DNA of 64,000 nt, from the NCBI RefSeq assembly GCF_051622035.1, contig NC_135365.1:10520001-10584000 (forward strand), written 5' to 3'. Origin of the DNA: Arctopsyche grandis (taxonomy: Eukaryota; Arthropoda; Insecta; Trichoptera; Hydropsychidae). The translations under genes were made by a program, and so were the position numbers. A model generated the notes under the pieces. It saw only the letters and a list, made by a program, of their open reading frames with translations. It was not told the DNA's origin and ran no database searches. Below are positions 1,041-63,484 of the stretch, piece by piece; positions within the stretch are counted from its first letter, which is position 1, and every line of letters begins with the position of its first letter.

Positions 1041-1092
1041 AATAAAATGACCAGTGTGACCTGACAGGTTGCCCCAAAGCGTCACACCGGTC
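985..1092 (-). mobile_element. 3' end of a short retroposon, hairpin variant D
   Basis: Read on the minus strand, a 12-bp stem (GACCGGTGTGAC paired with GTCACACTGGTC, one G-U pair) at 1049-1092 closes a 20-nt loop GCTTTGGGGCAACCTGTCAG. An A/T tail rich in AAATAAATA follows down to about 985. The loop matches the 3' hairpin loops of the SINEs elsewhere in this window although the stem sequence is unrelated. The body above 1092 was not recognised. I infer a heavily 5'-truncated retroposon sharing the same 3' signal. Confidence 0.65.
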
Positions 1093-1255
1093 TTATAATA
1101 TAATATGCATACCTACATACATTGTATACTTGTATACATATGTACGTAAACAGTTAGTCATAGTGTCGATTTGGGTGACTTTTCAAGGCACTATGGCATA
1201 TACATATGTATGTACATAAAATAAATAAATAAATAAATACATATACATGTATGTA

Positions 1256-1490
1256 AGTTCACTTGGCTTAATTTCAAGAAATATTTCGCAAAACATTAAA
1301 TATAAAGTTTTGTGTTTTACACTATTTAAAAATACTGGTGGCCTTTAGTAAATTTATTTTGCATTTCCAAGATTCTGTACATATCGAATTAAAAGTAGTG
1401 ATAGTAATTTGTGAAATGAATCAGATTGAAATAGTGTTTTTGGAACTGAAATTGAACTTCCACCACTTTCAAATATAATGGCTCATTTAT
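1256..1490 (+). repeat. Dispersed repeat K, copy 1
   Basis: About 235 bases align with segments at 2345-2580 and 6030-6200 in the same orientation. Shared landmarks are ATTTCGCAAAACATTAA, a TACTGGTGGCCT block, AAGTAGTGATAG and GGAACT..AAATTGA. No coding capacity or terminal repeat was recognised. One copy lies just upstream of the Kelch pseudogene and another in its third coding intron. Confidence 0.7.
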
Positions 1491-1742
1491 GAAAAATTAA
1501 TAAAATAAAGATACATTTTTGGTAAATAATGATTATATATATGTTTCAATCCAGCAATGGGTTGAGCTATGTACATTTACATACATACATATATCGTAAT
1601 AAAACCGCAGAGTGATAGCGCTTGAACTCATTCACTGTATTTCTGTCCAATTGGTAAGTCGAACTTTATTATTCTTTGCACATATTTCTTTGGTGGATAA
1701 TTTTCAATTTGTGTCAGTAAAAAACTAAGAATATATCATAAG

Positions 1743-3465
1743 ATGTTCGTAGTGAAAGCCAAGTCAGATTTTGCAGCAAAACGAATAAAATATTTGTATG
1801 CTGATACGAAGCAAAAAAAATACTACGACTCCATTTTTACTGCTCAAAACCGGAGGTATTTTTATTCGAATAAAAAAATACGATATTCTGTAGTCAGTTT
1901 TAATTTTTCATAATTGCAGCTTCCACGTGCATTTGATCGTGTTATCGGCGTGCAGCGAATTCTTTGGGCAATACGAAGATACAGTAAGTGAAATTTTTTC
2001 CGGCTTTAAGGTCAAAGTTATCGATGCATTACTGAAGTATTGTTACACTGGAGAAATAAGTATGAGTCATTAAATATCTAAAATGATTCGAAACGCATTC
2101 TCTAGAATTTAAATATAATTTAAGGTATAGACGACCATGACTTCGAAAAATTAATGGAGCTGGCCAATCTACTAAAAGTGAAAATTCCACCGCAATTTAA
2201 AACGGTCGATCTTTCTAACTGTCTGGAAGTATTGAAACTAACGGAAGATTTCGAATTAAATAAACAGGCATTTGCTTTGATTCTGGAAAATTTTGAGACG
2301 GTGAGTGTTTATTATATGACCCGTTATAATTGAAGCTCCACAAGTCCGCTTTCCTTCATTTTGAGAAATATCTCGCAAAACATTAAGTGTTATGTTTCGC
2401 GTTTAACAATATTTAAAATACTGGTGGCCTGTTTATTTTACTTTTTCAAGACATGTCAAACTTTCTCGACATGTCGAATTAAAAGAAGTGATAGAAATTT
2501 GTGAATTGAGTCAAACAGAAAAATTGTATTTGGAACTAAAAATTGATGTTCTACCACTTTAAAATATATGTGCTGTAATTTAATTTAATTTCTGTTTTAG
2601 TTGTACAAAACACAATACTTTCTCAATCTATTAGCCAACACTGTATTCGTAATCTTGGATTTGGACAATTTGATCGTCCCTTCCGAAGAAACTGTATTCA
2701 ATTCTGTGAAATTATGGATAAATTATGATGAAGCTAGCCGTAAAAATGACTTAGTTAAGCTAATGAGTACCGTCAGGTTATCCTTGCTTTCGTCCGAGGT
2801 ATTTTAGAGTTATTTATTATTATAGTTTATTGAAAAGAAATTGGAATAATGTGTTATATTTTCAGTTTATTGTCAGGGAAGTAATGATGTTCTGTACTTC
2901 GAGTGAAGAGTGTATGGTTTCTCTTAGACAAGCAATTTTAGACAAGATTTCAAGATTAAGATGATTCAGAAACGAGATACTCATTCGGTGAATATCAAAT
3001 AATTTATTTACTTACAACTATCAGAAATAATATAAAATTAACTTAATTTTGATTTCACCATTTTTAGAGCGTCGTATTCAAAGGTAAACTTTTTGTAGCT
3101 GGTGGCACTGACCATCCAATGGGTACTGTTTTAGATAGTGTCGAGCATTACGATCCAATTGCAAATCTGTAGACAGCATTCACCAAACTACTGAAACCTG
3201 TATTCGGAATCAGTCTATGTTGTTTTCGAGATCAATTACTTAGCATTGGTGAACTTTTTTTTTATATAACTTAATTTTAATTTATAGACCTGAATGTGTA
3301 ATGCAATTATTGCTTTGATTTTCAGGTGGAACTGGTGGTTGGCTTTACATAAAAGATGTTTGGGAATATGAGGAGAAAAGCAAAACTTGGAAAGCTTTGA
3401 CAAGTCTTAGCGTAGGGAGAAGTCATTCGATTGCACATTTCATTCCATACGATTCAATTATTTGA
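1743..3465 (+). pseudogene. BTB-BACK-Kelch (Kelch-like) gene, seven exons, disrupted
   Basis: Intact family members are usually substrate adaptors for Cullin-3 ubiquitin ligases: the BTB domain binds Cul3 and the Kelch blades bind substrate. Exons read 1743-1855, 1920-2059, 2125-2300, 2601-2798, 2866-2987, 3068-3248 and 3326-3465. All have GT-AG borders, and the phases of the first four join without a break. Exons 1-3 encode the BTB fold (HLIVLSACSEFF, LLKYCYTGEI, LMELANLL). Exons 4-5 encode BACK (TVFNSVKLWINYDEA, LMSTVRLSLLSSE). Exons 6-7 carry only two Kelch repeats (KLFVAGGTD, DSVEHYDP, DVWEYEEKSKTWKAL) rather than the usual six or so. Two defects are visible. In exon 5 the frame stops at 2962-2964, while an alternative frame runs open to the donor at 2987, which suggests a one-base loss. 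In exon 6 the conserved Trp after the YDP motif is TAG at 3170-3172. The ATG at 1743 directly precedes the BTB; a 5' UTR intron at about 1654-1717 is possible. It could still be expressed as a short BTB-BACK protein. Confidence 0.85.
2345..2580 (+). repeat. Dispersed repeat K, copy 2, inside the Kelch pseudogene intron
   Basis: This fills most of the 2301-2600 intron and aligns along its length with 1256-1490 (ATCTCGCAAAACATTAA, ATACTGGTGGCCTG, GAAGTGATAGAAATTTGTG). Two copies around one small gene point either to repeated insertion or to a local duplication in which the repeat was carried along. Confidence 0.7.
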
Positions 3466-3495
3466 TCAACTACAGTTTTTTTTATATTATTTGAA

Positions 3496-3501
3496 AATAA
3501 A
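3496..3501 (+). promoter_or_regulatory. Polyadenylation signal AATAAA of the Kelch pseudogene
   Basis: A canonical AATAAA lies about 30 bases after the last in-frame stop (3463-3465), within a T-rich then A-rich context, as expected for a compact insect 3' UTR. It supports 3326-3465 as the last exon. Confidence 0.6.
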
Positions 3502-62100: not shown

Positions 62101-62172
62101 AAATGGAGCGAAGCTCACTAGTTAAGTGATTGTTTGCCAGTTGAGGGTTTGTGGGTTCAAATCCCAGACGAA
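62100..62172 (+). mobile_element. tRNA-like SINE head
   Basis: An A-box-like GCTCACTAGTTAAGTGATTG and a B box TGTGGGTTCAAATCCCA lie about 45 bases apart. The arms do not give a full tRNA cloverleaf. It resembles the minus-strand head at 3905-4025. Confidence 0.5.
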
Positions 62173-62814
62173 ATCGATTATATAATATACATCTATATTA
62201 TTGTCGTTTGCGGGACTTCGAACGATGATAAAGTCGAGATCGCTCGTCTTCTTTTAAAATTTTCTGATTTTATCTAATAATTATTATTCAGACGTTATCA
62301 CTAAAAATACAACTTATGTATCTTTCAAAATCATAATCCATCCTCACTTTTTTTCTACCAACTTTAAAAGGCAAAAAAAAACAAGTGGGGGATATTAAAC
62401 TTTGCCATGGAAAATAGTATAATTTTTTGACATTACTACGCTCGCAATCAAATGAGCATTTAGAAAATAAATAAAAAGTTCATAAAAAATATATTGATAT
62501 AAATAATTGTATATCTCTGTCTGCTTTCGTGAAGAAACTTTTGAATTTTAAAAATGGAGGAAATTAATTTTCTAACTTTTCATATAAAACTCCAGACAAT
62601 TGGCAAGATCTTAGAGGCAACTTCAAAGCGAAGAAAATTTTCTTTTTTTATAGTTCTTTTGAACAAACATTGGAGAAACATTAAAATTCAATCCAAAGAA
62701 GATCGATTGAGATTTAAATAGAGTTACACCTTGCCAATAGTTTGAAACCTTCAAAAAAGTTATTCAACCGATCTAGTTTCATTGGGTTAACCCAAAGCCC
62801 TAATCCCTATTATA
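62173..62814. other. AT-rich non-coding DNA
   Basis: Nothing recognisable is seen. Confidence 0.5.
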
Positions 62815-62905
62815 TAATTGGCCAGGAAGGCGCATTGGGATTAACCTGTAAGGCCTTCCTGGTATATATGTAAAAATAAAATAAAATAAAATAAAATAAA
62901 ATAAT
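62815..62905 (+). mobile_element. SINE 3' tail only, hairpin variant A
   Basis: A perfect 10-bp stem CCAGGAAGGC/GCCTTCCTGG at 62822-62862, with its loop beginning GCATTGGGATTAACCTGTAA, is followed by TAAAATAAAA units. Only a few bases of SINE body precede it, so it is an extreme 5' truncation. Confidence 0.85.
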
Positions 62906-62919
62906 ATTTATATAATATT

Positions 62920-63037
62920 TATATATATATATATATATATATATATATATATATATATATATATATATATATATATATATATATATATATATATATATAT
63001 ATATATATATATATATATATATATATATATATATATA
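62920..63037. repeat. (TA)n microsatellite between two SINE tails
   Basis: About 115 bases of pure TA, directly followed by a full-length SINE. It begins where the A-rich tail of the truncated SINE ends. Confidence 0.95.
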
Positions 63038-63484
63038 GCCAGCAGCATAGCTCGGACGTTAAGCTTCTGCTTACCGTCAAGAAGGTGCCGGGTTCTATCC
63101 CTGAATGAAAATGAATTTTTCAGAGTATGCTGTTGGTCAGACCTGGATTTGTGACTCCAGGTTGATCGTTTCCTATCAGAGTTTGCCAATTTTCTCTGAT
63201 TTCATTGTTGAAACGGTTCCCGGAAAAAAAAAATTGGCTAAAAATCCTTCCTACCTACTATGTCACCACTATTTGAAATTTGATGGATGTACAATAAAAA
63301 TTTATGTACAATTCATAGATGTCTCGTTAATTTGCGAGTTTTTTCAGTGTCTCGCAATTCAACGACTTATAATAAAAAAATGCTGCATTTGTATTTGTAA
63401 TTGGCCAGGAAGGCGCATTGGGATTTACCTGTAAGGCCTTCCTGGTATATATGTAAAATAAAAAATAAAATAAATAAATAAAAA
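63038..63484 (+). mobile_element. tRNA-derived SINE, full-length, hairpin variant A, young
   Basis: This is almost identical to 13778-14220 (head CCAGCAGCATAGCTCGGACG; hairpin at 63405-63445; B box changed to GCCGGGTTCTATCCC). It sits between two (TA)n tracts. Confidence 0.92.

What the first reader, a model, noticed from the sequence alone, without database searches (positions are those of the whole stretch)
1049..63445. Conserved-loop, swapped-stem hairpin at the 3' end of many SINEs and short retroposons
Seen directly, in sense orientation, each hairpin has a 20-21 nt loop: variant A GCATTGGGGTTACCTGTTAG (32105-32144), B GCCCAGGGCCAACCCGTAAT (41161), C starting GCATTAGGTTTTTCCTGTAA (22741), D GCTTTGGGGCAACCTGTCAG (1049-1092), E ACTTTGGAACATTCTGTTAA (7928-7965) and GCTATGGAGCGATCTGTAAA (51742-51783). 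The shared pattern is near C..TGGG....CCTGT.A. The closing stems are unrelated in sequence (CCAGGAAGGC, CATGATGTC with a bulge, GGCCATTATGGC, GACCGGTGTGAC, ACACTCGTC), yet each pairs with its own partner, often perfectly or with G-U pairs. An A/T tail of TAAA type always follows. Compensatory stem change with a fixed loop means the RNA structure is selected. Known parallel: 3' stem-loops of LINEs such as eel UnaL2, recognised by the LINE reverse transcriptase and borrowed by SINEs. I infer that several SINE subfamilies and at least one LINE share one recognition loop while the stem drifts or is exchanged.
Basis: partly seen in the sequence, partly recalled or inferred. Interest (0 to 1): 0.88.

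Follow-up and report, generated by a model that had tools for sequence, protein, structure and literature searches.

The report
Shared 3' hairpin of LINEs, SINEs

Summary
The hairpins are real. All six quoted loops lie where stated; a covariance model finds 18 hairpins in the window, 16 of them its own training copies. The "20-nt loop" is itself folded: 4x4 internal loop, 4-bp stem, small cap. Stems covary: 12 sequences, 91.1% of cells paired (shuffled 70.6), 39 two-sided changes (11.8). The predicted LINEs exist: six lineages (A, C, D, E, G, H), RT ends 32-55% identical, end in this hairpin. SINE stems A and E match LINE-A and LINE-E (best arm identity 0.92); the search for a LINE-B did not complete. 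SINEs with alike bodies carry different hairpins, so tails were exchanged (inferred). The stems are not unrelated: A-D look like one drifted stem. Unexpected: 23 of 39 judged copies of the LINE-D end are hairpin plus tail only, starting within 3 nt of the stem where read; among 25 hits less favoured by ranking, 9. LINE/SINE hairpins with conserved loops and compensating stems are in print (PMC3747384); this is a new, rich variant.

The parts
32099..32152 (+). hairpin A1 (stem GCCAGGAAGGC/GCCTTCCTGGT), 3' end of a SINE with a type-I tRNA-like head
31743..32175 (+). SINE carrying hairpin A1; limits approximate
26483..26536 (-). hairpin A2, SINE with type-II head
62816..62870 (+). hairpin A3; homology to LINE-A begins at the hairpin and no SINE body adjoins: looks like a hairpin-only copy
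13775..14215 (+). SINE with hairpin A4 at 14139-14193; limits approximate
63035..63483 (+). SINE with hairpin A5 at 63399-63453; limits approximate
28201..28256 (-). hairpin A6, 3' end of a SINE
41158..41211 (+). hairpin B1, bulged stem, SINE with type-II head (about 40853-41236)
11616..11671 (+). hairpin B2
59877..59932 (-). hairpin B3 on a further SINE; found by the model, not used to build it
22737..22791 (+). hairpin C1, end of a 5'-truncated LINE-C copy (homology to the LINE-C end over 239 nt)
28117..28170 (-). hairpin C2; homology to LINE-C only within hairpin and tail (61 nt)
57310..57360 (-). hairpin C3 with shortened loop
1043..1096 (-). hairpin D1, hairpin-only copy of the LINE-D end
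1152..1204 (+). hairpin F1, downstream of a SINE core remnant at about 857-909; D1 lies between
7919..7972 (-). hairpin E1, SINE with type-I head (about 7895-8345)
51735..51788 (-). hairpin E2, SINE (about 51710-52100)
19469..19521 (-). hairpin E3, decayed, SINE (about 19469-19860)
58033..58085 (+). hairpin E4, SINE (about 57621-58100)

Best explanation
The hairpin is the 3' recognition signal of a group of LINEs (apurinic-type endonuclease plus RT in the one read whole) and of the SINEs that use them. Shown: six LINE lineages whose reverse transcriptases are only 32-55% identical at their C-terminal end finish in one architecture: an about 11-bp outer stem, a 4x4 internal loop, a 4-bp inner stem that mostly begins with U.G and G.U pairs, a 4-5 nt cap, then an A/T tail. 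The top is the better conserved part, the outer stem changes by paired substitutions, and SINE groups A and E carry the stem of LINE-A and LINE-E; clear LINE-SINE likeness starts at the hairpin. Inferred: the LINE protein grips the conserved top, needs the outer stem mainly as a helix, and primes reverse transcription from the TAAA-like tail. SINEs gain access by acquiring this roughly 60-80 nt module, probably by template switching, so alike SINE bodies appear with different hairpins. Inferred with less confidence: hairpin-only copies arise when an RNA cut back to the protected hairpin is used as template.
For: Window covariation: 83.3% of cells paired vs 62.6% shuffled, 46 two-sided changes vs 16.7, score 0.555 vs at most 0.230 when slid. 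Twelve lineage sequences: 91.1% vs 70.6%, 39 vs 11.8, 0.659 vs at most 0.225 slid, 9 of 11 outer pairs with two-sided changes; RNAalifold gives the same 15 pairs. LINE-D RT is Pfam RVT_1 at E 8e-27; LINE-H has Exo_endo_phos and RVT_1 in a 960-codon frame. LINE 3' ends picked from the protein hits: 12 of 12 carry the hairpin (7 H, 1 G, 4 D or D-like), plus 2 of 2 further G copies. LINE-C: RT pieces upstream in 3 of 30 hairpin loci (the loci were fetched with the hairpin, so its presence there is no test). LINE-A: 3' UTR with hairpin recurs in 39 other scored matches. LINE-E: 40 of 40 scored matches run from the ORF end into the hairpin. Mean identity between LINEs: outer arms 0.54, internal loop 0.66, inner stem 0.85, flanks 0.36. 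SINE-LINE arm match 0.92 for A1-LINE-A and E1-LINE-E. Parallel in print: zebrafish ZfL2 LINEs tolerate a swapped stem but not a swapped loop (PMC4176376, abstract and sections 12, 13, 19).
Against: No binding or transposition test exists for these elements. No LINE partner of SINE-B is known (search unanswered), and B tops are only 0.40-0.65 like any LINE top. The LINE-H stem has a 2x2 mismatch and LINE-G one mismatch, so stems are not always perfect. In the window set the number of further pair types was no higher than in shuffles (25 vs 22.8; 102 of 500 reached it). Arm and RT similarity are uncorrelated, which fits saturated drift as well as exchange. LINE-A, C, E and G reverse transcriptases are known here only from 126-212 residue C-terminal pieces. 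One outer G-C pair never varies (12 of 12), so the stem may carry sequence information. Besides the hairpin, LINE-A and SINE A1 share one weak stretch (77 nt, 70%, E 0.002). No hairpin was found outside this genome, but those collections hardly hold such animals.
Confidence: 0.88

Rival explanations
1. The outer stem, not the top, is the specificity code: each LINE protein reads its own stem, and the top is a generic fold. SINE stems match LINE stems because they must.
For: Stems of window copies match one LINE each (A1-LINE-A 0.92, C1-LINE-C 0.96, E1-LINE-E 0.92) and differ between lineages; LINE-D and LINE-H have nearly the same top (0.95) but different arms (0.58). One outer G-C pair is invariant.
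Against: SINE-E copies carry paired changes within the stem (C-G to U-A), so exact letters are not held; common descent alone explains alike stems; in ZfL2 LINEs the loop is the specific part (PMC4176376).
Confidence: 0.25
2. The hairpin serves RNA 3'-end formation or stability (a terminator or decay block) and not recognition by reverse transcriptase.
For: A strong hairpin near an RNA end, with exact 5' limits in hairpin-only copies, would suit a block to 5'-3' decay.
Against: LINEs and tRNA-headed SINEs share it, although their transcripts are expected to end in different ways (recalled, Pol II and Pol III); conserved internal letters and U.G pairs go beyond mere stability.
Confidence: 0.1
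3. The copies are inverted-repeat DNA transposons or chance variants of one repeat, so pairing reflects DNA palindromes.
For: Long near-perfect inverted arms in short elements.
Against: The structure lies at the 3' end of RT-coding LINEs with a tail; it keeps G.U pairs; antisense hits score far lower (62.5 vs 14.8 bits at 62816).
Confidence: 0.02
4. Hairpin-only copies are simply the shortest 5'-truncated LINE-D inserts.
For: Same hairpin and tail; 14 of 20 hairpin-only and 10 of 10 LINE-like copies equal the commonest letters over 74 nt.
Against: Truncation points are two-peaked: 20 of 30 within 3 nt of the stem, 0 of 30 between 4 and 90 nt, 10 of 30 at 91 nt or more.
Confidence: 0.3

Closest known systems
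3' tail stem-loops of L2-clade LINEs UnaL2, ZfL2-1, ZfL2-2 (PMC4176376, abstract and sections 12, 13, 19)
   Same: Stem-loop at the LINE 3' end that the LINE protein needs; in ZfL2 assays the stem can be replaced while the loop cannot.
   Different: Here one top is shared by at least six diverged lineages; it holds an internal loop and a second stem; clade of these LINEs not established here.
Maize and sorghum L1-lineage LINE/SINE 3' hairpin (Ohshima review PMC3747384, section 4.3)
   Same: Conserved loop letters, variable stem with compensatory changes, shared by LINEs and SINEs.
   Different: L1 clade of plants; conserved UCU in the loop; no hairpin-only copies or multi-lineage stems in that section.
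Insect SINEs with LINE-derived tails, HaSE1/HaRTE1.1 and PxSE5/PxLINE1.1 (PMC3272025, PMC8010984; passages)
   Same: tRNA- or 5S-headed insect SINEs, shared central regions, a tail from a partner LINE.
   Different: The words stem and hairpin occur 0 times in either main text; HaRTE1.1 is RTE-type.

Membership tests
Stringent-type LINE/SINE 3' hairpin | hairpin lies at the 3' end of an RT-encoding LINE | tested here: met
   LINEs A, C, D, E, G, H
Stringent-type LINE/SINE 3' hairpin | same 3' end on SINEs of the same genome | tested here: met
   A and E stems; no partner known for B
Stringent-type LINE/SINE 3' hairpin | structure conserved through compensatory change | tested here: met
Stringent-type LINE/SINE 3' hairpin | short repeat tail after the hairpin | tested here: met
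   TAAA/AAAT-type tails in the LINE ends and most SINEs; unclear in E3
Stringent-type LINE/SINE 3' hairpin | hairpin needed for retrotransposition and bound by ORF2 protein | not testable with these tools
   needs cells or purified protein
L2-clade LINE | RT falls in the L2 clade in a phylogeny | not tested
   No reference set of clades at hand. EN+RT shown for LINE-H; among the 120 listed of 3162 relatives the named ones are beetle RTs, best 42%. By eye, LINE-H has Pro-Trp and a Trp 19 residues on before its RT, as in the cTBR of PMC4176376 section 19, but not its Glu
UnaL2 hairpin itself | UnaL2 loop letters (GGAUA, recalled) | tested here: not met
   tops here are near RCWU-UGGR....YCUG-UNAR

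The most novel reading that the evidence does not exclude
One recognition top is a shared 'socket' for at least six diverged LINE lineages, so SINEs can change helper by swapping stems or whole tails, and the hairpin with its tail is by itself a mobile unit of about 80-100 nt: the footprint that the LINE protein protects from 5'-3' decay, reverse transcribed and inserted. That would make it among the smallest retroposons and a natural map of the binding site.
Probability: 0.4. Interest if true: 0.72.

Novelty: new variant of a known kind. Interest (0 to 1): 0.58.

Why it matters
How a LINE protein picks its RNA, and how SINEs switch helpers, rests to my knowledge on a few fish, silkworm and plant elements. 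Here one genome holds six natural stem variants on one top, SINEs whose tails appear exchanged, LINE-H copies with long open frames, and hairpin-only inserts with exact 5' ends that may mark the protected site.

Tried and rejected
Rfam: no family at its gathering score in the window. ARAGORN (bacterial code): no tRNA. No long LINE frame seen among window ORFs (frames were not searched against Pfam). Exact patterns for the SINE core and hairpin A: 0 matches in viral contigs, 0 for the core in genome contigs. Profile A3 of LINE-H relatives in viral contigs: 1 locus at 24% (not searched for hairpins); in genome contigs: 16 loci of distant LINEs, 14 of them searched with the hairpin model, with one weak hit in L127 (18.2 bits, E 0.0055) that I take for chance. 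Target duplications of hairpin-only D copies: mean longest match 5.55 vs 4.72 in mismatched pairs; 3 of 20 at 8 nt or more where 6.3% of mismatched pairs reach that; so none shown in general. L060 has 11 nt; L053 shows 16 nt with one mismatch by eye, separated from the stem by a few letters. A comparison of tail-binding regions between LINEs was not possible: the LINE-D stretch upstream of the RT is not in one frame. Never answered: the searches for hairpin A3, hairpin B (66, 125, 129, 132) and the LINE-E protein (83). Paper searches (listings) showed no title or abstract on this hairpin or on hairpin-only copies; the library lacks most subscription papers.
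Full report
Observation. The six quoted loops are in the window at the stated places with pairing arms. 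A scan that asked only for an 11-bp stem (one mismatch allowed) and a 19-22 nt loop found 22 and 21 hairpins on the two strands; 9 in sense orientation carry the loop motif, a pattern I wrote after seeing the loops. Twenty one-strand Markov shuffles averaged 4.6 hairpins and held the motif once in all. Sixteen copies were aligned; a covariance model from them finds 18 hairpins at E <= 1.5e-4 in the unfiltered window search, two of them new.

Structure. Of 13 minimum-energy folds, 9 give an outer stem of about 10-12 bp, a small internal loop, a 3-4 bp inner stem and a 4-5 nt cap; A2, C2, E3 and E4 fold less well or otherwise. So the conserved '20-nt loop' is a second, small hairpin. Its inner stem mostly starts U.G then G.U, and its last pair is G-C or A-U by lineage. 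RNAalifold on 12 sequences returns the same 15 pairs without being told.

Covariation. Window, 15 distinct sequences: 83.3% of 221 cells paired (shuffled 62.6), 46 two-sided changes (16.7), score 0.555 (0.205; best slid version 0.230); further pair types 25, not above shuffles (22.8; 102 of 500). Twelve sequences, 6 LINE lineages and 6 other hairpins: 91.1% of 179 cells (70.6), 39 (11.8), 0.659 (0.236; best slid 0.225), further types 28 (22.0; 1 of 500), two-sided changes in 9 of 11 outer pairs and 1 of 4 inner pairs. Caveats: the structure was drawn from these sequences, and shuffles do not keep relatedness; the slid control does. One outer pair, G14-C40 in alignment A2, is invariant in 12 of 12.

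The genome. The window is part of a 475.7-Mb assembly in 189 contigs. A 341-nt SINE query had 4,479 first-look candidates, of which 40 were scored. Of the 29 loci taken besides the window's own, 28 have a strong model hit at the expected 3' end and L017 a weak one (18.8 bits). In L031-L090, 60 of 85 model hits are the seeded hairpins; 25 lie in the flanks, one of them in the window's own region.

LINE partners. LINE-D: L050 has a 478-codon stretch with RVT_1 (E 8e-27) that stops just before a T-rich 3' UTR and hairpin D. A protein search gave 89 scored matches of 15,620 candidates: 5 at 93-100% identity, 2 at 80-81%, the rest at 56-57%, 39 rows listing a 960-codon open frame. I read 12 3' ends from that list: 7 show hairpin H (L091-L097), 1 hairpin G (L098), 4 hairpin D or an older relative (L099-L102). 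Two more G copies agree. LINE-H has Exo_endo_phos and RVT_1. LINE-C: the 30 loci of the C1 query carry the hairpin after a T-rich stretch, which the query itself selects, and 3 of them (L063, L077, L084) hold RT pieces 36-40% identical to D. LINE-E: L011, L028 and L029 have an RT end followed by hairpin E, and 40 of 40 scored matches (of 1,580 candidates) to the 215-nt stretch from ORF end to hairpin reach the hairpin. LINE-A: L038 has an RT end, a 3' UTR and hairpin A, and the UTR with hairpin recurs in 39 other scored matches (of 3,605 candidates). C-terminal identities between the six are 32-55% over about 121-129 residues.

What is kept and what changes. Between LINEs mean identity is 0.85 in the inner stem, 0.66 in the internal loop, 0.54 in the outer arms and 0.36 in the flanks. 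LINE-D and LINE-H share the top almost to the letter (0.95) with RT ends 48% identical. Arm similarity does not follow RT similarity (rho 0.17, p 0.55; 15 pairs that are not independent): C and D RT ends are 34% identical but arms 0.75, A and H RT ends 55% but arms 0.46. This fits fast saturation or exchange; I cannot separate them. The LINE-H stem has a 2x2 mismatch and LINE-G one mismatch.

SINEs. Window SINEs have two head types and one shared core. Best arm matches: A1, A3 and A4 to LINE-A 0.92, A2 0.83, A6 0.79; E1 to LINE-E 0.92, E2 and E4 0.83, E3 0.58 (decayed); C1 to LINE-C 0.96, C2 0.79; D1 to LINE-D 1.00; F1 to LINE-G 0.71; B1-B3 to no LINE above 0.54, with tops only 0.40-0.65. Clear LINE-SINE homology begins within 7 nt of the hairpin start in A and E; one weak extra stretch links LINE-A and A1 (77 nt, 70%, E 0.002). 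A1 and E1 are 82% identical over 225 bp of head and core yet carry hairpins A and E; A1 and A4 share the hairpin (47 of 54 letters) and the core (51 of 54) but little else; A2 and B1 bodies are 79% alike over 218 bp with hairpins A and B. I infer at least two tail exchanges.

Hairpin-only copies. Of 30 fetched D loci, 20 have no LINE sequence upstream and 10 do, with extents of 91 to at least 1,507 nt. In 20 of 20 of the former the letter at -4 is not the LINE's G, while -1 is A in 19, -2 is A in 14 and -3 is T in 17, so none runs past -3; nothing lies between 4 and 90 nt. Ten further copies were sampled: 3 hairpin-only (in L107 the junction itself lies just outside the fetch and its flank equals that of L039), 6 LINE-like, 1 fetch (L105) not informative, giving 23 of 39. 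L046 shares its flank with L045. The query was itself a hairpin-only copy and AT-rich flanks raise rank; among the 25 hits whose match starts at query base 33-36 the share is 9 of 25 (positions). Upstream flanks are not alike next to the hairpin; two pairs share other repeats farther up. In L038 such a copy interrupts the LINE-A 3' UTR: 97 nt are present that are missing in 21 of the 39 other copies, whose two sides lie together; the other 18 match only downstream. So hairpin plus tail moved there as one piece. A target duplication is not resolved because the site is an AT repeat, and duplications are not shown in general. In the window D1, A3 and C2 look like hairpin-only copies of three LINEs.

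Mechanism. Shown: shared architecture, covariation, LINE and SINE placement, mosaic SINEs, hairpin-only inserts. From papers: ZfL2 proteins need the stem-loop, accept another LINE's stem but not its loop, and bind it between endonuclease and RT (PMC4176376, abstract and sections 12, 13, 19); ZfL2-1 makes 5-bp duplications (PMC4245944, abstract). Inferred: the proteins here read the top and use the stem as a helix. Inferred, weaker: hairpin-only templates are RNA remnants protected up to the stem base.

Novelty. Conserved loop letters with a variable, compensating stem shared by LINE and SINE are in print for maize and sorghum (PMC3747384, section 4.3). Insect SINE/LINE pairs are in print without mention of hairpins (PMC3272025, PMC8010984, passages). 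New here, as far as eight paper searches reach: this two-storey hairpin, its spread over six LINE lineages of one genome, its use on mosaic SINEs, and the hairpin-only copies.

Noticed in passing
window 13873-13941, 31827-31895, 40973-41041, 48923-48991, 57694-57762, 63133-63201 and - strand copies: The SINEs share a core near GATCGTTTCCTATCAGAGTTTGCCAATTT, a candidate conserved central domain.
   Followed up: partly
L091 and the places: 39 of the 89 rows list a 960-codon open frame, which suggests that LINE-H was active recently.
   Followed up: partly
L031-L060, tail of the LINE-D end: The tail holds an AT palindrome, TTATTATTTTAAAATAATAA, before the TAAA repeats in most copies.
   Followed up: no
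window about 3960-3975 - and 62153-62168 +: Two further tRNA-like B-box stretches (GTGGGTTCAARTCCCAG) suggest another SINE family.
   Followed up: no
window 10294, 10819 and about 4100-4150: GGAGTCGGA-type units recur, some forming a hairpin of their own.
   Followed up: no
L004:1313-1366 -: A SINE-B-like body with a further stem variant (ACCATTTGTGTA side), so B stems seem to vary too.
   Followed up: partly
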